A DNA stretch of 64,000 bases from NCBI GenBank assembly GCA_947184155.2, contig CAMXCT020000313.1, positions 141,972 through 205,971 on the forward strand, given 5' to 3'. The translations under genes and the position numbers were made by a program. Of this stretch, positions 31,889 through 45,200 are shown in pieces; within the stretch, counting starts at the first letter, position 1; each line of letters begins with the position of its first letter. The DNA is from Cladocopium goreaui (taxonomy: Eukaryota; Sar; Dinophyceae; Suessiales; Symbiodiniaceae). Under the pieces are notes generated by a model. That model was not told the origin of the DNA, searched no databases, and saw only the letters and a list, made by a program, of their open reading frames with translations.

Positions 31889-32046
31889 CTATCCCGCCGC
31901 ATCTTTGGCAAGCGGAGCTAGAGCTGCTGGAGCTGATGATGGTGACAACGAGCGCTGCCGTGGAGCTTTTGGAGCTGCTCCAGACTCGAAAACGGAGAAG
32001 GTCGCATTGCCGTTGTCCTCAGGGGGCAGGTGGTCACAAGGTGATT
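31889..32046 (-). CDS. PPP-like gene: last exon, C-terminal tail and stop
   Basis: 51 codons then TAG. It starts with a split codon that joins the previous exon as E and continues SPCDHLPPEDNGNATFSVFE, then a Pro/Ala/Ser-rich low-complexity tail. High third-position GC. No domain; probably disordered. Confidence 0.7.
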
Positions 32047-35000
32047 CTCACAGGAACCACGAAAAATGGCCATGAAATGATGGGAAAACCTTGGAAAACT
32101 TACAGTAGTTACGATTTATGGCTTTTACCATCTGGTTATGACTAACATCGCCATGGAAAATCCACCCATTTTTAATAGCCAGAATGTAAATCTTTTAACC
32201 TCCAAATTTGGGGTATACAAACGCTAGTTACCTCCAAATGACGTTTCCTGACCACTTTTGCAGGATGACTTGCCAAAGCGATCCCTGGGGGTAAACACCC
32301 GCCACCATGAATATTGACCATTTGCTTTTGTTGGGCGGTTGATGTCCAGTAAACATCGTTACACCTGCCAACTTGCTTGCTTGAATGTATCATGGTGATG
32401 CACTACTGGTGAACCAGCTTTCTACCTCAAGTTGCTGGCCAACTGGGATTGAAAAAATGAAGCGTAGGTGAGTCATCCACAACTAGAGAAGCAAGAAATG
32501 GAAACTTTGACATGTTTGAAAATTTTGAAACGTAGCAACCAACTCCACACCGTAGCCACGAGCTCAACCGAGCGGCGTCGATCAACATGACAGCCCCCTT
32601 GTTGTTGAATTCTCCCCTGAGGGCAGTTGTCGTCTCAACTGCTTTGACTCCTTTGAAACCCCAAGGGACAATCACAGGACCATCACTACTTTGGAATTAA
32701 CAGTATCCTTGGAAATAATGTTTCCTTGCAAAAGATACTCTTCAAAAATCGCAGGATACCCAAACTTTCGTCCCTGTTTTTGGCAAACGGAAGCGACCAA
32801 GCCTTGCAGTTTCATGACCAATTTTGATGCTGCAAAGGGACGCGTAGTTGGCAACGCTGATGATGGTGACCAACCTGATCCCATGCTGAAAGTTTCGTTC
32901 AAGGAGGGCACAAAAGTGTGACGCCCATGACATTGTGAAGTTAGCTTCAGATGCTTTAGCTACTTTGACTTGATAACCTTGTTGAATTTGGGACATCTTG
33001 GGAAGACAAAATCATGTTTGACCAGTTTTCCTCCACGCCTGCCTTGGAAGGCAAGGTCACTCTCATCTACAAATAAGGGCTCAAGCATTACAATGTAATA
33101 CAACTTCAGCACAGCTCTTGACATATGAATCGTGGGGAATTTTCAAGAATATGCCTGCATCCCTGAAAAATACGTCACAAACACATATAACATACAGAAA
33201 GACGCGGCCTTGACGATGAAACGCCAATGAGCCTGGAACATCCCGAGGTCCCGAACCATCACCTGGCGGATGTGCCCAGGAACTTGGTATCTCCAAACCA
33301 TTCGAAGCCTTCATCCACCACAGCAGTTCGACACATCCTTGGACGCCAGGGCTGGGCCGTGGGTGACCTGGAACTGGAACACCATGCTGTTGAAGCAATA
33401 AAGCGGCAGAGTCAGCCTCTAAGGATGATTAAAAATGATGTTTTATGTTAAAAATGATGTTTTATTGGCCCCCACTTCTGAAAAATTCCTGGAGATAAAC
33501 ATGGAGATGCAACAAATCATTTGTCACATGCTATGGCCAGCACAGCTTCATCCAATGATTCATTCCTATTGGTTGCTGAGGGGATGTACCGAAGCTGATC
33601 AAGGCTTCACCAACTAGAATTGAACTTAACTAATATCACACGCATCCCATGTAATCATTTCTTTATATTATATAAATGTTGCGTGTAATATCTATACAAT
33701 AAGTTTTTCAATCTATTTCTATTCATACACCATATGGATATCATCCCATGGCTGATTTCTCCCAGCTCCCAGCGCGGGGCGCATCTCAAAGTTGTTCGCT
33801 CGCAGGAAGTTCTGCACCACGTCCGGCCCAAACTTGTTGCCATCTCGGATGCTGTCCGAGAAGCCTGGGGATGGGACCCGGAATGACAGAACACTTTGCG
33901 ACATAGAAAATGGCCATTGTTAAATGGTATAAATTGTTGATTTACCAATTCAAAATAGTGATTTTCAACAGGAAAACTGTTAAACTACCAGAGGCTATCC
34001 AACTTTCCAGCTTGTGATGACATGTACATTCATGGGACGAAACATCTAACGATTGGTATAGGACGATGAAGGTAAAGATGTACCAAGTCGCACATCCTTT
34101 CAAAATCAATCTAAATCACCGATATTCACCTATAAAGATTGATGAATACCCAGCTCAGTTTTACCCAAACAACATTTTTCTGCCTCAAAGTTTGGACCGA
34201 AACACGATGGTAGGTTTATATCCCCCGACAGATCCCAATGACCAAAACATGAAATGATTCTCCTCCAGCACATGAGTGACACGAGAACATGCTGCGGTTG
34301 TGAAAGGTATATATATATATATGTAGTATACAGTATACTCTAAATATAAATATATATATATATCATTATATATCCATATGAATATACACAATTATACTCT
34401 CTTGCCAGTCGTGAGAGATGTGTGTTATCCCAGACAGACCCAGTGGTGGCACTGCCCACTGTGCCTGCGATGTGGAGGTCCGGCTCCTTAGAGTTTCGAG
34501 GAGGTTAAGCGGAGCGTTTCTGTTAAGCGCTTGGGAAACTGGTGGTAGTTATATCTATAGTATATCTATAACATCTATAACAGATCCTTTGGGGATCTAT
34601 AGAGGTACTGTTTGATTTACTGTTATAGATGTTACCCTCTGGTTATTTAACATAGCCATGGTGTAGATGGCCCATAGAAAAAGATGGTTTGCCGAACTTA
34701 AAAATGGGTGGATTTCCATGGCTATGTTAAATAACCACATGGTATCTATAGTTATATCATCTTATATCTAGTGATAGGTAATATCATCTTATTTTATCTT
34801 ATTTATTCTTATTTTATCTGATTATAACATCTTACAAGCCATCTTAGGACTTAGGACCCATCTAAATAGAGCATGTTGGAACTTACAACCCATATTTATG
34901 GCACAGCCTTGGACGACAATAGCGTTCGCCGCAACCCAGCATCAGCCCAAAGTAGATCGCACAAGAATCCTGGCACCATGTCGTGTGGAAACTGAAGGTG

Positions 35001-38000
35001 GGTCGTGTCGAAAAGGCCACAATAGGACTGGGCAATCCAAACAAAATCCCTGGTTTAGTATTGGATTATCAAGGATCCGTTATTCCCCACCTGCCAGGTA
35101 AGGGTTGTTAGATTTTATCAGAGCTGTTCTTCTCCTCCTCGCTAGCTGTCCTCCACTGCCTCCTCCTCCTCCGCCTTCTCCTCGTCCTCCTCCTCCTCCT
35201 TCTCCTCCTCCTCCGCCTCCTCCTCCAGTTTCTCCTCCACCACCTCTGCCTCCACTTCCACGTCCACTTCCGCCTTGCCAACTCTTCGCCAAGCTCTTTG
35301 CCAACTTCCCAGCTCAGTGTGCACCGCTGGACCTCAACCTGGGAGCTGCCCAGCTCAGTGTGCACTGCTGGACCTCAACCTGGGAGCTGCTCAGCTCAGT
35401 GTGCACCGCTCGACCTCAACCGGGGACCTGCCCAGCTCAGTGTGCACCGCTGGACCTCAACCGGGGACCTGCCCAGCTCAGTGTGCACCGCTGGACCTCA
35501 ACCGGGGACCTGCCCAGCTCAGTGTGCACCGCTGGACCTCAACCGGGGACCTGCCCAGCTCAGTGTGCACCGCTGGACCTCAACCTGGGACCTGCCCAGC
35601 TCAGTGTGCACCGCTGGACCTCAACGGCCAGATAGAATGCCAGAAGATATGCCAGATGGAATGTCAGATAGAATGCCAGAAGATATGCTAGAAGATATGC
35701 CAGATAGAATGTCAGATAGAATGCCAGAAGATATGCCAGATAGAATGCCAGAAGGTATGCCAGATAGAATGCCAGATAAAATGTCAGATAGAATGCCAGA
35801 AGATATGCCAGATAAAGTGCCAGAATGTTTGCCAGATAGAATGCCAGAAGATTTGCCAGATAATATGCCAGAAGGTATGCCAGATAGAATGCCGGAAGAT
35901 ATGCCAGAACATATGCCAGAAGATATGCCAGGTAGAATGCCAAAAGATATGCCAGATAGAATGCCAGCAGGTATGCCAGATAGAATGCCAGAGCAAAAGG
36001 CAGATAGAATGCCAGAAGATTTGCCAGTAACAAAATGTATAAATGTCATGGTGGGGATCACACGAAGTAAAGTATTTTTTTTAATTATTGAATTATATGA
36101 TCTTATTTTGGGGAATCTGGCAACCGGAGGATATCTACACATCCTCTGTGGTGGTGTCGTCATGAAACTGATCGCAACATTAAATCACCTGTGCGAACAG
36201 CTACTTAATATATGTATGTATAAATATATATATATATATATTGGGGGGTATGTTTTGACATATTTGACATCTGTATATATGAAATTGTATGAATATAAAC
36301 TTAACACTACACATAGTACCATCCACCAACCTTTTGGATTTGTTCATGTTGCCAGGGAGATATGGACATAACATGACATAACTCCCCGAAAACAGCACCC
36401 CCTAACCCCCAAAACTGGTATAAATAAATGGATGTTCAATGTTCAAGACGGTATTTCATGGCTTTGATCCATCTCCCATCCCCCAAGGTGAGTCATTCAG
36501 GCCGGTGGTATGACGACTCTTGCTCATTTTAAGTGTTTTGTGCTCCGTTGATTCATGCTGCTATTCAAACAAATGACAATTTTTTGCTATTCAAATAATG
36601 GCAATTTTGCTGTGCAAAAAAATGACCTAAGTCTCCAAATTCAAAGAGCCGTAGCCATCCGTAGCCCCTCCAGTCATACCGTCCCCTGGCTGCTCCTTCG
36701 TCCGGAATGTCCGTGGGCCGTTCGAGGCGTTGCAAGAAATCAAAACCTGGCCACTGGCTGCTGGTTCACAAAGCCACAAAGACAAAAATGGTGGTTCGTT
36801 CTGCGGGTTTTTGAACCAATGTCTGAAATGCCCAGTCATGGTTGAGATCAACATAGATCAAACCACAATTTTCCACCCAGCATTCCGCCCAGTCATTAGC
36901 GCTTGATGATCCGGCCGTTCAATCATGGGGGGGATCTACAATGACCCCCCAGTCATGGTTGGTTCATGGGATGGTGGCATTGGGTGTGCCACATTGGTTG
37001 GGTTTACATCATCCCAAACAGGGAAAAAAACCTGGCCCTACACTATTGGGGATGGTTTATGGCATTGGGTTTACCATGGTTTACCATGGTTTACCACATG
37101 AGAATTCCTTGGTTTTGATCCATTTCTATGTAGAAACACGATGTGTTCCATGTGCCAACACCATCCAATGAAGGCCGGCCGAACCATGTTCACAAGAGAG
37201 CCCCGAACAGACGCAAAGGACCCGATTTTGGACCACACAGACCTCGGCAATTGAAGATAGCTATGGAAAAATTCCCACTTATCGATCGATACTACAAGTA
37301 ATTAATACCTTCTGATTACTTTACATAGCTCATAACCATGGAAAATGGCCCATTTTTGGATGGTTTACCTATTAAAAATTGTAATTTTCCATGGCTATGT
37401 TAAATAACCAGATGGTAATATTAAGAAGTCCCCATGAAACATGGCACTTTTCCAATCCTACGCCATCCGGATGCAACGAGCTATGCTACCAACAACGCAA
37501 ACAATCAGGATGTTGCAGCACCCAAACAAAAACAAACAGCCATTGCATGCCATTGCCATGAAAAGTCACGCCATCTTTTTATACGAAACGAGTTGATGTT
37601 CCGAAAAATGGCAACATGGAGGGTTTCTCCCGAATTCATGACGAACTCATGGTTTGGGCTAGTGACTTGGAAACCGCAACGCCCGCCTGTGAATATGAAA
37701 AGAGATGAAAAGAGTGATTGCAAATGGCTCTGTCCAACAAACGGGATGCTCCAGTGGCAATTCCAGGAAACTAAAGCTGTAAACATCTATAAACCACTCT
37801 ATTTATTCTATTTTATTGTTCTTTTGTCTCACCTCACTGTGCAAACTCCTAGGGCGCCTAGGGCCCTGAGATTCCAGTGGGCCCACCAGTGGCCCCCCAG
37901 TGCGCGCTGCCAAGGCACATGTTTGCCACGCAAGAGAATGAAATCTCAGCATCACATGGTGACTGCCATGGTGGCTGGCTAGCGATCTTCCTAGATGACC

Positions 38001-39885
38001 CATGAGACAAACCTATACCGTATCTGGTTGGTGGTTGAGCCACCTACCCCTCTGAAAATTATGAGTTAGTTGGGATGATGACATTCCCAATATGTATATG
38101 GGAAAATAGAAGCCATGTTCCAAACCACCAACCAGGTATAACTCCGTATAACCAATCATCTGCACAACTCATAGTCAACACCAATCCAATTTCTTACCGT
38201 CAGTTGTTTTGGCAAACTCACTCCATTCCCTCCAATCAACATCACTACCCATCGCTCAACACAAGCAATCCTGCTCACAATTTTGGGAATGTTTCCCCAT
38301 ACGAACCACTGATCTAACATGGCAACTGAACATCAAACATTTGACCATTCCTACATGATTTAACATCTGGTAATGCAACATAATCAACATAGCTACGATT
38401 AGCTACGGAAAATCATCATTTTCAATTCTGTAAACCCTCCATAACTGGACCATCACTGGGCCATCTTCGATAGTTGTCGAAGAAATTACCGGAGGATGCC
38501 AGGCCCCTCCCGGCCAAGCATCTCTCAGGGAACATACATTTGTACCTTGCTCGGTGCTGTTCGTGCCCAGATCATCTGAAACGTAGTAATATGTAGTAAT
38601 GCTTGCAAAACTTGAGCCATGTAGATGATGAAAACCAACATACACATCATCAGAATGCTCCAAAATTCACGCTTAGGCTATCTTAGGCTTCTGAAGACAT
38701 TGTCAAAAATACAGTTGTACTTACGCACGCACAGGATCAACATAAATAGATGTAAATAGATCACAGCATCCATATGTGGCCAAATAGAAATGTTGATACT
38801 GCGATGTGAGATCCAAGCAAACTCACAAAAAACTCATCGATCGGGAGTCACACCAACAACTGGATGGTGCAACAGTGCAACCTGCAAAACACAAAGATTT
38901 GAACGCCACGGTTTGGCTTACATACATCGATTTGCAGAAGACTAGATTTTACAGCCATTCTACCGAGCGAACTCATTGAGCCATCGATGTTAAAACGTGC
39001 CAAGGGAATCCTATGCACCTCCCAATTATCCACACTGTAGGGTGACCCAATATGCCAATATAAGGTCTGTGGGTGGTTAGTGGGTCATCCGCCCCAAAAA
39101 ATCTGAAGTGGGGTGGGAGCAAAAAAAAACATGGCCGATTGAACAGGAAGAAACATCAAATCCACAATTCTTGTAGTAGTACGTGGTCATACGTGGTAAT
39201 GTTCCCCTATGTTGATCCATGTTGAACTGTTGTCCATCCAATCCTCTTTCCACTTGGGAATGTGCTGATTGCAGACAATATTTCCAGCATGCCTGTGGTG
39301 TTTGTGGAGTTTTCTTGGCCCCCCCATTGACGGCAACACTTGCACCAAAGAGACGAGAACAGCAAACCCAAAGTCTCAATGCCGTGCTCCCCCCTGGGCC
39401 GACTTTGTGGGTGGGTCTTTCAACACGAGCTGGAAATTTAGCAGAAATAGATAGAAATCGTGGAATTAAAAAAGGGCCCTTTCGGGACATATTACTGGAC
39501 CCCATGGGACCCCCATTCCAGGACCCCCCAGGGGGATTCGTGGGATTCACCCAACATGTTGACCAGTTGTCACCACCATGAAATCATGTTTGGTATAAAT
39601 CATCCCCATTTATCGTAGCTTTATCATTGGGAGATCATTGGGATATAGTAGCTATAATGATGCTAATAGTAGCTGGTATATGCTTTTATAACCATTAATA
39701 GTAAACCATCACAATTATACTAATCGTTATATCATTGGGTTTACCAGAGTATAACAACATATGTGCCAAGGCCCTGGCCATGGCACATATAAACTTGGGG
39801 CATCCCAATTCACCTGGTTGATCAATATAACTGACTAACTGGCCATTTGAATAAACATGAAGAAACCACTAAAACAACGACGGCG

Positions 39886-39918
<33 letters not shown>

Positions 39919-40696
39919 TTTGTGAAATATACTTTTGCACCCCGACTTTCAGAACACCATCAGAAAAGCATATTGGTTCATGGTCTGACGTCCTGTGCCC
40001 CCGCCTGTTGCAGTAATTGCCCAAGCCCACATAGCGTGTGGTCAACACATCACCACACGTGGCAAAGATATGGCGCAGTTGGTGGAATTCACCTGGGTGG
40101 AGGCTTAGCCATGCCATGGTGATGGGATGCCAAGGTGGTGTCGTCATAGATCCCATGATTGGTGCGAATCCAAACATACCGGGTATATCATGGTATATAA
40201 ATGGCATATAACATTGCTGCATATTGTTCTCATTTTTTGGGGATTGATATGACATGATATGACATGATATGACTGATGACCAGCCTCCAATATGCCATCT
40301 TGATGGGGTTCCGCGGGCAGATGGTGACAGACCAAACATATTGAGGCTGACTGGTTACTGCCCATCGGGAACCAACCATTTCACATACAGGATCAATTAC
40401 TTGCCATACTTTGCTGCACAGCTATCCCGCATCATTCTTGGGCATGTTGGGTGATATGATCGCACCTGCATAAATGAAAACAGTTCACCAACCTGAAATT
40501 TAAAGCCCCATTAAACTATGTTAAACTATATTAAACTCATTTAAACTCAAACTATCACATAGTTGGGAAACAACCCGTTCCCCATTTAATAGAGACTATG
40601 GATTGCCCTTTAGGTACTCCCATCCACGCCCAGGAGCCACTCAAGGAGCCAAAGACCACGACGCCGTCGGGGACGTGTAGCACTGGAGCTTCTGAC
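31889..40696 (-). CDS. PPP-family Ser/Thr phosphatase-like gene, predicted catalytically dead (14 exons, 5' end not found)
   Basis: Fourteen short exons (39-158 nt) join with consistent reading phase at all thirteen junctions, assuming GT, GC or GA donors and AG acceptors. The join encodes a whole PPP catalytic domain of roughly 250 residues plus a tail of about 70 residues and a TAG stop. Motif order matches PP1: GDxHG, GDxVDRG, RGNHE, HGGLS, CDLLW, FGPDVV, the RAH region, SAPNYCGEF. Metal ligands at PP1 positions D64, H66, D92, N124, H173 and H248 appear as S, S, N, K, C and absent. No stop or frameshift breaks the domain. Active PPP enzymes use two metals to hydrolyse phosphoserine and phosphothreonine; this one should not. 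It probably binds partners or substrates, or it is a recently decaying paralogue. Exons N-terminal to 40696 are not identified. Confidence 0.75.
32232..32284 (-). CDS. PPP-like gene: exon in the C-terminal tail
   Basis: Acceptor ACCCCCAG, donor GTAACT, 17 codons DRFGKSSCKSGQETSFG with split codons on both sides. Phases match its neighbours exactly; another frame is also open, so phase decided the call. Confidence 0.65.
32551..32616 (-). CDS. PPP-like gene: exon with the GEFxNxGA motif
   Basis: Reads GEFNNKGAVMLIDAARLSSW. PP1 has GEFDNAGAMMSVD here. Acceptor GCCCTCAG, donor GTGTGG. This near-invariant PPP motif is one of the firmest anchors for the family call. Confidence 0.85.
32842..32885 (-). 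CDS. PPP-like gene: exon with a SAPNY-like motif
   Basis: HGIRLVTIISVANY then a split A codon. It matches the PP1 LVTLFSAPNYC strand, with P to A and C to A. Acceptor CTTTCAG, donor GTCCCT. The join gives NYAGEF where PP1 has NYCGEF. Confidence 0.8.
33268..33337 (-). CDS. PPP-like gene: exon replacing the RAHxVVEDGYE region
   Basis: Reads MCRTAVVDEGFEWFGDTKFL then GTS. PP1 has ICRAHQVVEDGYEFF. The histidine that binds metal (PP1 H248) is missing and the stretch is one residue shorter. A GC donor at 33267 keeps phase with the next exon; a GT donor at 33262 exists but breaks it. Confidence 0.75.
33783..33864 (-). CDS. PPP-like gene: exon with FGPDVV
   Basis: FSDSIRDGNKFGPDVVQNFL then RANNFE. 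Corresponds to WSDP...RG...FG(A/P)xVV..FL of PPP enzymes. Acceptor CATCCCCAG, GC donor. Joining to the next exon gives NNFEMMCR. Confidence 0.85.
34632..34742. mobile_element. Family A element in a PPP-like gene intron
   Basis: TACCCTCTGGTTATTTAACA to GCTATGTTAAATAACCACATGGTA, inverted ends, in the intron between the CDLLWAD and FGPDVV exons. Confidence 0.8.
34928..34969 (-). CDS. PPP-like gene: exon with CDLLWAD
   Basis: FLCDLLWADAGLR. CDLLWSDP is a PPP hallmark; here S is A and P is A. The acceptor is GTGCCAG. The donor is uncertain: phase requires GA at 34927. Confidence 0.8.
35120..35300. repeat. CTCCTC-rich low-complexity tract
   Basis: CTC/CTT triplets; frames reading polyproline or polyglutamate are artefacts. 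Intron of the PPP-like gene. Confidence 0.85.
35308..35625. repeat. 42-bp minisatellite, about 7-8 copies
   Basis: Unit CCCAGCTCAGTGTGCACCGC then TGGACCTCAACC(G/T)GGGACCT. The period is a multiple of 3, so long frames stay open. Intronic. Confidence 0.95.
35626..36030. repeat. 12-bp GCCAGATAGAAT/GCCAGAAGATAT repeat
   Basis: Over 30 units. All frames are open for long distances because the unit is 12 bp. It lies directly after the 42-bp array in the same intron. Confidence 0.95.
36696..36746 (-). CDS. PPP-like gene: exon with RPTDIPDEG
   Basis: FDFLQRLERPTDIPDE then a split G. PP1 has RIMRPTDVPDQG at this point, the segment after the HGG motif. Acceptor GGCCAG, GA donor. Joining to the next exon gives DEGFLCDLLW. 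Confidence 0.85.
37194..37242 (-). CDS. PPP-like gene: exon with degenerate HGG motif
   Basis: VCVVQNRVLCVCSGLS. PPP enzymes read ..VLCVHGGLS; His (PP1 H173, metal ligand) is Cys and the first Gly is Ser. Acceptor GCCGAG, GT donor, phase-consistent on both sides. Confidence 0.85.
37307..37416. mobile_element. Family A element in a PPP-like gene intron
   Basis: TACCTTCTGATTACTTTACATAG to GCTATGTTAAATAACCAGATGGTA. Confidence 0.75.
37616..37686 (-). CDS. PPP-like gene: exon after RGNHE
   Basis: GRCGFQVTSPNHEFVMNSGE then TLH. RCGF aligns with the R-x-Y-G-F of PPP enzymes; the rest is diverged from the usual D-E-C..W..F..LP segment. Very good acceptor (CATATTCACAG) and a GT donor; phases fit both neighbours. 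Confidence 0.65.
37906..37944 (-). CDS. PPP-like gene: exon with degenerate RGNHE motif
   Basis: FILLRGKHVPWQ. PPP enzymes have LLRGNHE; the metal-ligand Asn (PP1 N124) is Lys and Glu is Val, while the His (PP1 H125) remains. Acceptor GCTGAG, GC donor. Confidence 0.8.
38022..38137. mobile_element. Family B element in a PPP-like gene intron
   Basis: CTGGTTGGTGGTTGAGCC to CATGTTCCAAACCACCAACCAG. Confidence 0.8.
39338..39386 (-). CDS. PPP-like gene: exon between the VDRG and RGNHE motifs
   Basis: HGIETLGLLFSSLWCK. PPP enzymes have S-x-E-x-(L/I)-x-L-L-x-x-L-K here. GT donor. The acceptor may be 12 nt further in, at ATTGAG; both keep the frame. Confidence 0.65.
39986..40092 (-). CDS. PPP-like gene: exon with degenerate GDxVDRG motif
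   Basis: EFHQLRHIFATCGDVLTTRY then VGLGNYCNRRGHRTS. It aligns along its length with QxxDLLRLF..G.P..T.YLFLGDYVDRG(H/K)RS. The two Asp of GDYVDRG (PP1 D92, D95) are both Asn and one Arg is inserted. Acceptor CACCCAG; the GA donor is inferred from phase. Confidence 0.85.
40638..40696 (-). CDS. PPP-like gene: exon with degenerate GDxHG motif
   Basis: SEAPVLHVPDGVVVFGSLS with a split G. PPP enzymes have P..VVGDIHGQ..; here GDIHG is GSLSG, losing the Asp and His metal ligands (PP1 D64, H66). A GC donor joins in phase to EFHQL. The 5' boundary is less certain. Upstream exons of the gene were not identified. Confidence 0.8.
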
Positions 40697-40778
40697 CTTG
40701 GGGCAGTTTGAATAGTGGATGCCATGGTGATAACGACCATAAGTTGGGATACAACCCCAACAAAGACAACAAAGAACA

Positions 40779-40890
40779 GGTAAATGTTTATATATATATA
40801 TATATAATATATATATTATATATATATATTATATATATATTATATATATATTATATATATTATATATATATATGTATATATCATATCATA
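40779..40890. repeat. (TA)n tract
   Basis: Nearly pure TA/TATT run next to the 40900-43315 repeat-rich element. Confidence 0.95.
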
Positions 40891-41344
40891 ATATATGTAT
40901 ACCTGGGAAATCGTACGGACAAGTGTTTTTGTCCATTATGAGTTTTACCCGTAATGGACGTTTTTTGGTTCAATTGCATATTTTGGTTTTTGATTGTGAG
41001 GGGTTGTCCAAATCCTTTGCCGACACCCTCCGACAGTCTCCTAAAGAGTAATTTCAACCCAAAATGGAGCAGATTGGGAGTCGTGATAGTGTACCCAAAT
41101 CTGGCCACAAATGCTGCCATATTTGCTACCAATTTTGGATGCACCTTAAAATGCTAATATTTGTCCAACATCCTGTTAAAACTAGACGACGGATGGCCCG
41201 AGAGCGTAGAGGAGCAGGGTCTTCTCTTGTTAGTATGGAGACACCATATTAGAAACAATATATTAAAGATGTGTTATATGCAGTCGAGAAGAGGAGTATT
41301 AAGACAAAATAGCAGAAGTGCAAGACAATAGTTTGCATCGCAAA

Positions 41345-42065
41345 CACTTTTACACACAAAAGCTTTTACACACAGACGCTTTTACATACAGACCCTTTTA
41401 CGCACAGACCCTTTTACACACAAAGCTTTTGTCCACAGAAGCTTTTACATACAGACGCTTTTACACAGACGCTTTTACACACAGACACTTTTACACACAG
41501 ACACTTTTACACAGACACTTTTACATACAAAGCTTTTACCCACAGAAGCTTTTACATACAGAAGCTTTTACAGACATACGCTTTTACACAGATATACGCT
41601 TTTACACAGATGCTTTTACACACAGACACTTTTACACACAGACACTTTTAACAAAGAGCCTTTTACACACAGGAGCTTTTACACACAGTCACACAGAAGC
41701 TTTTACACATAGACGCTTTGACACACAGGCACTTTTACACACAAACACTTGTACATACAAACACTTTTACAGACAAACACTTTTACACATAGACGCTTTT
41801 ACACGCAGAAGCTTTTACACACAGACGCTTTTACACACAGACGCTTTTACACAGTTACACACAAAAGCTTTTACACACAGACGCTTTTACACACTAACGC
41901 TTTTACACACAGACGCTTTTACACGCAAGCACTTTTACACACAGACGCTTTTACACACACAGACGCGTTTACACACAGACGCTTTTACACACACAAAAGC
42001 TTTTACACACAGACGCTTTTACACACTAACACTTTTACACACGGACGCTTTTACACACAGACACG
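41345..42065. repeat. ~15-bp minisatellite, ACACACAGACGCTTTT type
   Basis: Dozens of CTTTTACACACAGACG variants, related to the array at 4930-5700. The 258- and 184-codon frames here are repeat artefacts. Confidence 0.9.
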
Positions 42066-42067
42066 TG

Positions 42068-42605
42068 AAATCGCAATTTTTCCTCAGTTTTTGACGAGCG
42101 ACCCTCAGTTCGTGCGAAAGCGTTGCTCGGGGACAAGTAAAATCGCAATTTTACCTCCGCGTTCGCCGATCGACCCTCATTTCGTGCGAAAGGGTTGCTC
42201 CAGGACAAGTAAAATCACAATTTTACCTCAGTTTTGGCCGATCGACCCTCATTTCGTGCGAAAGGGTTGCTCCGGCACAAGTAAACTCGCAATTTTACCT
42301 TAGTTTTTGCCGATCGACCCTCATTTCGTGCGAAAGGGTTGCTCGGGGACAAGTAAAATCGCAATTTTACCTCAGTTTTCGCCGATCGTGCTTGGGGGCA
42401 AGTAAACTCGCAATTTTTCCCCAGTTTTCACCGATCGACCCTCATTTCGTGCGAAAGGGTTGCTTGGGGGCAAGTAAACTCGCAATTTTTCTTCAGTTTT
42501 CGCCGATCGACCCTCATTTCGTGCGAAAGGGTTGCTCGGGGGCAAGTAAACTCGCAATTTTTCCTCAGTTTTCGCCGATCGACCCTCATTTCGTGCGAAA
42601 GGGTT
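42068..42605. repeat. 72-bp tandem repeat, about 7-8 copies
   Basis: Unit CGATCGACCCTCATTTCGTG then CGAAAGGGTTGCTCGGGG and CAAGTAAAATCGCAATTTT. Starts of CGATCGACC fall 72 bp apart (about 42167, 42239, 42311). One unit is truncated near 42385. Confidence 0.95.
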
Positions 42606-42639
42606 CACGTTTCGTGACTCCCCGCCGGCACCACCCTCG

Positions 42640-43025
42640 GCCTAAAGAGAGAAAGATAAAGAAGGCGAGAGAGAGAAAAGGGAGAGAGAAAGGAGAGAGA
42701 GAAAGGAGAGAGGAAAGAGGAGAGAGAGTGAGAGAGAGAGAGAAGATGTGAAGATGAGAAGGTGTGAGAGAAGGTGTGAAGATGAGAAGGTGTGAGAGAA
42801 GGTGTGAAGAGGAACGGATGTGAAGAGGAGCAGATGTGAAGATGAGAAGGTGTGAAGATGAGAAGGTGTGAAGATGAGAAGATGTGAAGATGAGAAGATG
42901 TGAAGATGAGCAGATGTGAAGATGAGAAGGTGTGAGAGAAGATGTGAAGATGAGCAGAAGATGTGAAGATGAGAAGGTGTGAGAGAAGGTGTGAAGATGA
43001 GAAGGTGTGAAGATGAGAAGATGAG
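42640..43025. repeat. Purine-rich GAGA and GATGAGAAGGTGTGA repeats
   Basis: GAGAGAAAGG tract followed by GATGTGAAGATGAGAAGGTG units of mixed 12, 15 and 21-bp period. Confidence 0.9.
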
Positions 43026-43329
43026 ATACAGACCCCCACTATTGGAAGAACCCTGCGCTCAGACGCTCTCGGGAAAAAAACAGTGACAGTAACCATATTT
43101 CAACATACTGCCCCCAATTCTGCCTCTAGACGAGACGCTCTTACTGTCGAACCAGTCCGACAAATCCAAGATTTCAGAAAAACTATTGACCTTTAATGAC
43201 CTTTAAGTAGAGGGATTGCAGCAGGACATGGCCGTATTTGGGAAAAATGTAACGAACAAAAAAATGTCCAAACCCGTACGGACAAAAAGGTGCCTTTATT
43301 GTTTTCCAGGTATGTATATATGTCGTAAT

Positions 43330-43900
43330 ATATTGCGTATATATATATATATGTGTGTAAAATATAAATATATAATATAATATATATATTTATATATATA
43401 CACATGCTTAATTCTACTTATATCATCTGAAACTGCGACCCAAAAATGGTGTCTATTTTTGTTGTTTGACTTGTCCGAGTAATTAGCTGGTACCCTCAGA
43501 AATCAAGCATCAGTGGAAAATCATGAAAACCATTCCTCCCTTTGTAAAAGCCAGGCTTCAAGAAGGGTGCCTGTTACACGTTGCTCCCAACAAGATTTAA
43601 ACACATTGATCCGGATCATATTGACAACCCCTTGGGGTTTGATTTTGATCTTAGGTTAATAACCATCCTAGGAAACCATTTAATGATAACCATCCTTCAA
43701 AACCATATAACCATCCATTGTTATTATTTAACGTCTTTTTAGGGCTTCTATACCACGTTTTGGAACATTGATTTCCGTTCGGCCCGACAGTCCCGAGCGG
43801 GTTTCAAATCAAAACTGCCACTAAAAGTACCCCCCTTGAAAGATAGAAGTTGAACAATTCCCACAAAAAATAGTGATGTAATATTACATAATAGTGACAT
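43330..43900. other. No supported gene
   Basis: TA-rich start, then AT-rich sequence with CCATTTAATGATAACC words. Confidence 0.4.
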
Positions 43901-43927
43901 AATAGTGATACCTTGTTCTTTTCCATC

Positions 43928-44062
43928 TTTCGGTGTTCTTATCTCGGATGAAGCACCGGTTGGGATCTTTACAGCTGAAGCGGCAGAAAGACTCGCGATG
44001 ACAACTCGCAAAGGCGAAGGAGATCCTTTCGAGGCCGCAGCGATGGTTCGTTGGCAATGTGT
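43928..44062 (-). CDS. Exon candidate, strand not fully settled
   Basis: GC-rich island. The minus frame with strongest third-position GC contains LERISFAFASCHRESFCRFS. A second minus frame and a plus frame (GIFTAEAAERLAMTTRKGEG) are also open. Neighbours favour minus. It could be an N-terminal exon of the PPP-like gene, but no motif shows that. Confidence 0.4.
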
Positions 44063-44084
44063 GAGTCACTGGAAAAAAAACATA

Positions 44085-44400
44085 CCATCTGGTAATTTAA
44101 CATAGCTATTGAAAATGGCTATTTATAGTGGATTTTCCCATTGAAAATTGTGTTTTTCCATAGTTATGTTAGTTTACCAGAGGGTACCATCTGGTTATTG
44201 AGTTGTTAGTTAGAATATGACCATTAAATCATTAATACACGGTATCATCATTATAATTACCATCTGATCCATCTGGTTAATTATGTTATTTTAACATAGC
44301 GAACTGGAAAATCACCAAAAAATAAATGAACATTCTAGCTGGGAAAATCATCGATTTCCAAGGGGCCATTTTCCATGGTTATGTTTAATAACCAGAGGGT
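44085..44400. mobile_element. Two family A elements in tandem
   Basis: First 44085-44187 (TACCATCTGGTAATTTAACA to GTTAGTTTACCAGAGGGTA). Second about 44269-44400, longer, ending GTTATGTTTAATAACCAGAGGGT. Confidence 0.75.
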
Positions 44401-45200
44401 GAAGAATTTTAAACTGGACAATGCCCTGTTTAGATCTGTTTAGATACCTAACTTATCTAACTGGGAAATTCATGACTTTTCACTGGAAATAAGAGTAATC
44501 CCATCGAATACGGTCCACATTCCCCATAGCTGGCTCCTGAGGTCCTATGGGCGATTTCCCTACGAAACTGGAAATGATTGGGGAGGGAAAGGATCAAACT
44601 AACTGGAAATTCTGTTTGGATACCAGATATCCAAAAATTGTTGGAAGAAATTCTGTATTATCGTGGAAATATGTGGAAATTACAGAGTAATTGACCCAGA
44701 TGCATCCAGATGTTGGTTAATATCAATATCTGGATAACATGGGGAGTGATCCCCCAAAATGATGCCATGTCTGCCACTAGGTGTTTCCATCCATTCCGGT
44801 TTTGGCGGCTGGTAACATTTGAGTCTGTGACCAACAAAGTATGTTGAAATCCAAACGATAGTCCCCAAACCCAAGCGGGACACAAACATCACAAACACAG
44901 CTGCCACACAAAATCGACTCCCAAAACTCTAAAACCGTGCAATGCCGAAGACAGGACCGGGACCGATCTTGGTCGGGAGTTTGATATCCCATCCAATTTC
45001 TGGGGTGCCAGCCAGGACTGTTCTATTACTTTGGTTCATTCGGGGGTTGCCCGCAAAACTGGGTCATGTGCAATACTATATACTAAGACGGCATTCTCCC
45101 ATGAGCAACAGCCCGAGGGTGAAAATAAATTCAGGGTTGACATTCTATAATCTTTAGGATGGGCACCAACTTGGGATATGGTCACTTCAAAATGGTCCAC
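44401..45200. other. No supported gene
   Basis: AT-rich intron-like sequence. Short frames on both strands lack splice context. Confidence 0.35.

What the first reader, a model, noticed from the sequence alone, without database searches (positions are those of the whole stretch)
31889..40696. Intact-frame PPP phosphatase-like gene with all six metal-ligand positions altered
Seen: fourteen minus-strand exons assemble in phase into a PPP domain in the right motif order. GDIHG reads GSLSG, GDYVDRG reads GNYCNRRG, RGNHE reads RGKHV, HGGLS reads CSGLS, RAHQVV reads RTAVV, and SAPNYC reads SVANYA. Known: PP1 D64, H66, D92, N124, H173 and H248 bind the two catalytic metals. Structural stretches (CDLLW, FGPDVV, RPTDIPDEG, GEFNNKGA) are well kept and no stop or frameshift occurs. 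Selective loss of catalysis with a kept fold is the pattern of a pseudoenzyme. I know of no such PPP pseudophosphatase described in dinoflagellates, but I cannot search.
Basis: partly seen in the sequence, partly recalled or inferred. Interest (0 to 1): 0.9.

Follow-up and report, generated by a model that had tools for sequence, protein, structure and literature searches.

The report
Dead PP1-like phosphatase with ubiquitin-like domain
This coral-symbiont alga gene encodes an open, conserved relative of the enzyme protein phosphatase 1 that has lost the residues holding its catalytic metals, and it belongs to a little-noticed family of such apparently dead phosphatases joined to a ubiquitin-like domain.

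Summary
The window lies in a Cladocopium goreaui assembly. Its minus strand carries 21 exons (31892-49580) giving 348 of 348 residues (20-367) of annotated protein P0001 (same contig, so not independent). All six PP1 metal-ligand positions are changed. Corrections: GNYCNRRG is GNYCNRG; RGKHV arises because 36 residues, present in near-identical protein P0006 from a transcript-sized contig, are missing from the assembly, where P0006 reads RGKHE. A ubiquitin-like domain precedes the PPP domain. Relatives form one clade (11 rows, 100/96, active-site columns masked); 11 of 11 lost all six ligands, H125 is kept in 11, position 124 is Lys/Arg in 10. One further row, P0068, keeps H173. At least six loci lie in this genome. 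Neutral decay is unlikely. The modelled fold is PP1. Best reading: a conserved pseudophosphatase acting by binding; what it binds is inferred. PPP pseudophosphatases are known (PfPPP8; trypanosomatid PPPs); this family was not found in the open-access library searched.

The parts
49510..49580 (-). exon (P0001 res 20-42), ubiquitin-like domain; start edge uncertain by 1 base; the first coding exon lies outside the window at L022:2763
48603..48645 (-). exon (res 43-57), ubiquitin-like domain
48121..48169 (-). exon (res 58-73), ubiquitin-like domain
47585..47616 (-). exon (res 74-84), end of ubiquitin-like domain
45541..45586 (-). exon (res 85-99), start of the PPP part
45218..45252 (-). exon (res 100-111)
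43985..44025 (-). exon (res 112-124)
40638..40696 (-). exon (res 125-144) with GSLS(G) for GDIHG: D64 to S, H66 to S
40005..40092 (-). exon (res 145-173) with GNYCN(RG): D92 to N, D95 to N; D71 to Q
39355..39393 (-). exon (res 174-186) RGEHGIETLGLLF, R96 kept
38523..38545 (-). exon (res 187-194)
37919..37944 (-). exon (res 195-203) ending RGKH: N124 to K, H125 kept
37243..37918 (-). interval where 36 residues of P0006 (ECSTISR...CMPF) would be expected but are not encoded in this assembly
37185..37242 (-). exon (res 204-222) with CSGLS for HGGLS: H173 to C, G174 to S
36696..36746 (-). exon (res 223-239) RPTDIPDE
34944..34969 (-). exon (res 240-248) GFLCDLLWA
34465..34486 (-). exon (res 249-255)
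33783..33864 (-). exon (res 256-282), R221 kept, FGPDVV
33284..33337 (-). exon (res 283-300) with CRTAVV for CRAHQVV: H248 lost with a one-residue gap
32842..32874 (-). exon (res 301-311) ISVANY(A): Y272 kept, C273 to A
32577..32616 (-). exon (res 312-325) AGEFNNKGAVMLID
31892..32017 (-). last exon (res 326-367) with a low-confidence tail; stop TAG at 31889-31891

Best explanation
The gene encodes a conserved pseudophosphatase: a ubiquitin-like domain followed by a PP1-like PPP domain that is predicted to fold like PP1 but lacks the ligands for both catalytic metals, so it should not work by the PPP two-metal mechanism (shown at the level of sequence and model only). It belongs to a family, known here from three named dinoflagellates and from unnamed sources, in which ligand loss is shared by one clade with several gene copies. 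Because much of the phosphate-pocket side is kept (R96, H125, E126, Y134, R or K at 221) and a Lys/Arg nearly always replaces metal ligand N124, the most likely mode is binding, not catalysis: the basic residue stands in for metal charge, the pocket holds a phosphorylated or acidic ligand, and the ubiquitin-like domain supplies a second contact. The binding mode is inference.
For: In the 11-row clade (support 100/96 with 38 motif columns masked) all six ligands are lost in 11 of 11; H125 kept 11 of 11, K/R at 124 in 10 of 11, R96 in 9 of 11, Q at 71 in 10 of 11. Among 8 full database rows only three family-fixed departures from near-invariant PP1 residues exist: D71Q 8/8, N124K 7/8, G174S 7/8; the other ligand positions drift. 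P0006 (403 aa) and P0007 (382 aa) come from contigs of 1292 and up to 1199 bases, transcript size. P0008 keeps an open frame at 49-60% identity by method, where neutral simulation leaves 0.4% (60% identity) and 0 of 1000 (50%) runs free of stops. dN/dS 0.17-0.24 between three family paralogues. AF2 mean pLDDT 89.7 and TM-score by target 0.93 to PP1. PF00149 above cut-off in 4 of 4 proteins; PF00240 above cut-off in 1 of 4; beta-grasp-like order of strands and helix.
Against: No assay, localisation or partner. P0068 (Durusdinium trenchii by its name; left out) keeps H173. R96 is lost in 2 of 11 rows, 124 is Q in one; Y272 is V in 2 of 8 and 221 is K in 3 of 8. The ubiquitin match of the window's own protein is below cut-off (21.3 bits against 25.4). 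The reference locus lacks 36 core residues, so the copy in this strain might be broken. dS is near saturation (1.4-1.9), and dN/dS is for paralogues, not the window gene. At P0007's distance (about 10-11% different) neutral evolution is not excluded by the stop count alone (7.4% of runs stop-free at 85% identity). In one search fluke pseudo-PPPs sit beside the family (83/83), so one origin confined to dinoflagellates is not shown.
Confidence: 0.72

Rival explanations
1. Permanent metal-free PP1 mimic: it engages PP1 biogenesis partners of the SDS22 type, which recognise PP1 lacking metal M1, and so titrates or regulates them.
For: SDS22 is reported to bind only PP1 lacking M1; [quoted passage not shown] PP1 Y134A fails to bind and R96 matters for that complex (PMC10776994, passages). 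Y134 and R96 are kept in 8 of 8 rows while the metal ligands are gone.
Against: No SDS22 was sought in this genome; the rest of the SDS22 interface was not compared; R96 is lost in 2 of 11 rows.
Confidence: 0.15
2. Decoy for PP1 regulatory subunits through the RVxF groove.
For: PP1-like fold; F293 kept in 8 of 8, V264 in 5 of 8, L289 in 4 of 8 rows.
Against: F257 is kept in 1 of 8, R261 and C291 in 0 of 8, against 44-47 of 47 intact rows, so the groove does not look selected. Which residues form the groove is recalled, not from a call.
Confidence: 0.06
3. Decaying pseudogene.
For: 36 core residues missing from the assembled locus; long introns with tandem repeats.
Against: 348 of 348 codons open; near-identical P0006 with the block present; the same ligand loss in distant relatives with open frames; exon residues 117 of 118 identical in four read-through ORF proteins of other contigs against 345 of 368 in flanking frames of three of them (small, not all independent).
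Confidence: 0.07
4. Still an enzyme, by another mechanism or chemistry.
For: H125 and E126 kept in 8 of 8 full rows, H125 in 11 of 11.
Against: The ligand positions drift; no replacement metal-ligand set was seen at these positions (other sites were not searched for one).
Confidence: 0.05

Closest known systems
PfPPP8 and homologues in apicomplexans and chromerids (PPP-type pseudophosphatase; PMC10317984, passages)
   Same: PPP domain with GDXXDRG changed (GNLINRG there, GNYCNRG here); alveolate host (recalled); no activity found there, none expected here.
   Different: PfPPP8's motif lies beyond residue 1300 and the family has altered motif spacing; one core motif is described as mutated. Here: 403 aa, ubiquitin-like domain, near-PP1 spacing, all six ligands lost. 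Orthology not tested (sequence not fetched).
Protein phosphatase 1 (PP1/Glc7)
   Same: Closest by sequence and fold among solved structures; the family branches next to or among PP1-like rows.
   Different: Metal ligands lost; RVxF-groove residues eroded; ubiquitin-like N-terminus.
Kinetoplastid PPPs with altered catalytic residues, kPPP and a PP2B-like cluster (PMC2175518, passages)
   Same: PPPs with substitutions at catalytic residues, called possible pseudophosphatases.
   Different: Other lineage; not compared by sequence here.
UBLCP1 (PMC5451543, PMC3646893; titles and starts of abstracts in the listing)
   Same: Ubiquitin-like domain joined to a phosphatase; binds proteasome subunit Rpn1.
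   Different: FCP/SCP-type and active; another catalytic fold (recalled).
PP1 H66K metal-deficient variant and SDS22 (PMC10776994, passages)
   Same: A Lys at a metal-ligand position gives a stable PP1 without M1.
   Different: Engineered and at position 66; here natural, at position 124, with all six ligands lost.

Membership tests
PPP Ser/Thr phosphatase family (by descent and fold) | Metallophos domain and PP1-like fold | tested here: met
   PF00149 above cut-off in 4 of 4 proteins; TM-score by target 0.93 to 2o8a; trees
PPP Ser/Thr phosphatase family (as active enzyme) | Metal ligands of GDxHG, GDxVDRG, GNHE, HGG, RAH motifs | tested here: not met
   0 of 6 in P0006 and in 11 of 11 clade rows; 1 of 6 in P0068
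Pseudophosphatase | Kept fold, lost catalytic residues, conservation | tested here: met
   (paralogues)
Pseudophosphatase | No enzymatic activity in vitro | not testable with these tools
   needs purified protein
PfPPP8 family | Orthology to PfPPP8 | not tested
PfPPP8 family | Large protein with the PPP motifs beyond residue 1300 and altered motif spacing | tested here: not met
   403 aa, ubiquitin-like plus PPP, near-PP1 spacing; PfPPP8 features from PMC10317984 passages
Ubiquitin-like domain proteins | Pfam ubiquitin match | tested here: inconclusive
   above cut-off only in P0007 (25.6 against 25.4), below in 3 of 4; strand and helix order fits a beta-grasp
Pseudogene | Stops, frameshifts, neutral evolution | tested here: not met
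   but 36 residues are missing from the assembly

The most novel reading that the evidence does not exclude
Dinoflagellates evolved a multi-gene family of ubiquitin-like-PP1 pseudophosphatases in which a near-fixed Lys/Arg at a metal-ligand position replaces the metals as a built-in charge, turning an ancient phosphatase into a constitutive phospho-ligand reader or metal-free PP1 mimic that links phosphorylation to the ubiquitin/proteasome machinery.
Probability: 0.22. Interest if true: 0.78.

Novelty: new variant of a known kind. Interest (0 to 1): 0.62.

Why it matters
PPP pseudophosphatases are rarely reported; the 2023 paper calls PfPPP8 the first experimentally characterised one (PMC10317984, passages). 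A conserved, duplicated family that has lost all six metal ligands but keeps the predicted fold is a natural test of what PP1 can do without metals. In public databases it bears the name 'Serine/threonine-protein phosphatase PP1-2', which would mislead counts of phosphatases in coral symbionts.

Tried and rejected

Led nowhere: Rfam scan of the window at gathering scores, 0 hits; Pfam on the hand-joined reading, 0 families, I think because the joins were imperfect and 36 residues were missing; paralogue searches of the own genome with P0027 and P0068 did not complete, so six loci is a lower bound, and other partial matches (for example C6024, C180, C1524) were not examined. A DNA-level dN/dS of the window gene was not possible with what I held. 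C1219 turned out to hold a canonical PP1 (GDVHG, GDYVDRG, RGNHE). The C4094 reading is a poor spliced alignment (165 of 366 residues, 20 pieces) and only its later part went into.

Row choice in the trees. (43 rows, no masking, with P0068): the nine Ubl rows are one side of a branch at 95/73 with the C513 row inside, and three fluke rows stand beside them at 83/83 on a long branch (1.98). (35 rows, 38 columns masked): I left out P0068, the six other pseudo rows (P0030, P0046, P0080, P0084, P0086, P0088) and three PP1-like rows (P0026, P0032, P0061), and added C4889 and C4094; support 100/96. So the high support is from a chosen row set. P0050 (near-copy of P0049 in the PPP part), P0091 (partial) and P0001 were in neither tree.
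Full report
Where it is. The window is G000:C313:141972-205971, part of a 1,165,616,438-base assembly in 6202 contigs. Contig C313 is 935,878 bases, the same length as the longest contig listed for P0001, which NCBI names 'unnamed protein product [Cladocopium goreaui]' and UniRef 'Serine/threonine-protein phosphatase PP1-2'. The published C. goreaui SCF055 assembly is 1.2 Gb in 6843 scaffolds and its gene prediction was guided by Iso-Seq (PMC9412976, passages). The contig counts differ, so I infer the same or a filtered assembly.

Gene structure. A spliced alignment of P0001 residues 20-367 to the minus strand gives 21 exons from 49580 to 31892, 348 of 348 residues identical, TAG next. As P0001 is a prediction from the same contig, this shows where the annotated exons lie, not that they are spliced. 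Donors are GC 8, GA 7, GT 5 and acceptors AG 20 of 20; the script all but excluded other dinucleotides, but AG followed by G in 19 of 20 was not scored. The first exon (MASAVNESAEVNVSVLNLAG) lies at L022:2763 on the minus strand, about C313:228,563.

The missing block. P0006 (403 aa, on a 1292-base contig, hence probably a spliced transcript) equals P0001 plus 36 residues, ECSTISRIYGLFDACKMNYSVKLWKSFVQAFNCMPF, and one more difference, W for C. The block was not found in either strand of the window nor in the assembly, where the best of 13 matches is 67% identical and lies in a paralogue. P0096, an ORF on a 15,857-base contig, carries a 25-residue piece differing from the block at 3 places by eye, as a genomic exon would. 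I take the gap as an assembly or strain deletion; reads would decide. In P0006 the motif is RGKHE, so E126 is kept and N124 is K.

The ligands. Against an intact PP1 ruler P0006 has S, S, N, K, C and a gap at D64, H66, D92, N124, H173 and H248; D95 is N. R96, H125, E126, Y134, W206, R221 and Y272 are kept. PP1 residue numbers and roles are recalled. Of the 92 proteins tabulated (96 held; P0002-P0005 left out) 57 have all six ligands; of the other 35, many are fragments with gaps.

The family. A profile search with the PPP domains of P0006, P0007 and P0008 gave 91 proteins among 4624 candidates. Besides intact PP1-like proteins it brought further proteins with a ubiquitin-like start and the same losses: P0014, P0027, P0041, P0049, P0050, P0068 (Durusdinium trenchii by its name) and the partial P0091 (Symbiodinium sp. 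CCMP2456 by its name). P0068, whose annotated C-terminal part does not look like PPP, keeps H at 173 and so has lost five of six. In this genome further members lie at C2336 (two: L001, and L002/L026), C4889, C513 and C4094: with the window gene at least six loci; the C513 and C4094 readings show no clear ubiquitin-like part, and the C4094 reading is poor.

Trees. With 38 motif columns masked, 11 family rows form one side of a branch at 100/96 against 22 intact PP1-like rows with PP5 and calcineurin of the same genome as outgroups. Without masking and with other rows it is 95/73 for the nine Ubl rows with C513 inside, and three fluke pseudo-PPPs stand beside them at 83/83 on a long branch. In the 11 rows all six ligands are gone in 11 of 11; kept or fixed are H125 11 of 11, K/R at 124 10 of 11 (Q in C4889), Q at 71 10 of 11, R96 9 of 11. 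In 8 full database rows the only family-fixed departures from near-invariant PP1 residues are D71Q, N124K and G174S. Drift at most ligand positions with a kept basic residue at 124 is what suggests selection for a new use of the pocket.

Selection. Neutral simulation of the 348-codon window frame (half of the mutations transitions, no indels) gives on average 6.4 stops at 60% amino-acid identity (0.4% of 1000 runs stop-free) and 8.2 at 50% (0 of 1000); at 85% 2.5 stops and 7.4% of 2000 runs stop-free. P0008 keeps an open frame at 49-60% identity, depending on method and reach; P0007 is 89-90% identical by alignment, too close for this test. Nei-Gojobori dN/dS between three family paralogues is 0.17, 0.24 and 0.18 with dS 1.44, 1.38 and 1.94, near saturation; the window gene itself could not be tested. 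Read-through ORF proteins of other contigs match the window's exon residues in 117 of 118 places (P0002 30/30, P0003 30/30, P0004 18/18 and 12/12, P0005 27/28) against 345 of 368 in flanking non-exon frames of P0002, P0003 and P0004 (only alignments of at least 70% identity; P0005 gave no residues there). This is small and the contigs may not be independent.

Structure. AlphaFold2 on P0006 with a 58-row alignment: mean pLDDT 89.7, pTM 0.88, tail 387-403 below 50. Foldseek against the PDB puts PP1 chains on top: 2o8a TM-score 0.68 by query, 0.93 by target, rmsd 1.7. I had no coordinates, so the place of K124 was not measured. The first 82 residues show a beta-grasp-like order of strands and helix; Pfam ubiquitin reaches its cut-off only in P0007.

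How it may work. Shown by sequence and model: predicted fold kept, ligands lost, relatives conserved, contigs of transcript size. Inferred: no catalysis; a basic residue at 124 takes over metal charge; the pocket binds a phosphorylated or acidic partner; the ubiquitin-like domain gives a second contact, as UBLCP1 with its UBL domain binds proteasome subunit Rpn1 (titles and starts of abstracts). A rival, mimicry of metal-free PP1 towards SDS22, rests on reports that SDS22 binds only M1-free PP1, that PP1 H66K does not leave SDS22 in cells and that Y134A fails to bind (PMC10776994, passages; PMC11199634, passages, describes SDS22 holding nascent PP1); Y134 and R96 are kept in 8 of 8 rows. The RVxF groove (residues recalled) is eroded, which speaks against a regulatory-subunit decoy.

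What is known. PfPPP8 was reported in 2023 as the first PPP-family pseudophosphatase, with GNLINRG for GDXXDRG, homologues in apicomplexans and chromerids, and no activity of the recombinant domains (PMC10317984, passages). Trypanosomatid PPPs with altered catalytic residues were named possible pseudophosphatases in 2007 (PMC2175518, passages). Of the three Entamoeba pseudophosphatases two are said to have PTP-family domains; the passage on the third was cut (PMC3827238, passages). Searches for dinoflagellate pseudophosphatases or ubiquitin-like phosphatases brought no paper on such a family to the listings; only open-licence PMC papers are held, and I judged most hits by title and start of abstract. 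I therefore rate this a new variant of a known kind.

Noticed in passing
proteins P0080, P0084, P0088 (flukes by name) and P0030, P0046 (rotifers by name): PP1-like proteins with several lost metal ligands also occur in animals. In one search the rotifer pair lies apart from the algal family, but the three flukes stand beside it at 83/83 on a long branch, so one shared origin is neither shown nor excluded. PPP pseudophosphatases may be commoner than reported.
   Followed up: partly
window 35308-36027: Intronic tandem arrays (41-base unit x 7.8; 24-base unit x 16.7) lie inside a 419-aa plus-strand open frame (35112-36368) that is mostly repeat.
   Followed up: partly
window 41347-42605: 16-base (x 45.9) and 72-base tandem arrays in the intron upstream of the GSLSG exon.
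   Followed up: no
window about 37440, 34740, 32160 and the window start: A recurring short element resembling CATGGCTATGTTAAATAACCAGATGG, in both orientations, seen by eye in several introns; looks like a dispersed small repeat.
   Followed up: no
L001 and L002/L026 (G000:C2336, about 2.7 kb apart): Two family paralogues in tandem, one in a single open frame, the other in two exons, against at least 22 exons in the window gene.
   Followed up: partly
P0050 compared with P0049 and the C4889 gene: P0050 joins an N-terminus like that of C4889 to a PPP part like that of C2336/P0049, by eye: gene conversion or a chimeric assembly.
   Followed up: no
P0068 (Durusdinium trenchii by its name): Family member with H173 kept and a C-terminal part that does not look like PPP, perhaps a wrong gene model.
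   Followed up: no
G000:C1219 (L011): A canonical intron-rich PP1 of this genome with GDVHG, GDYVDRG, RGNHE, a useful active control.
   Followed up: partly
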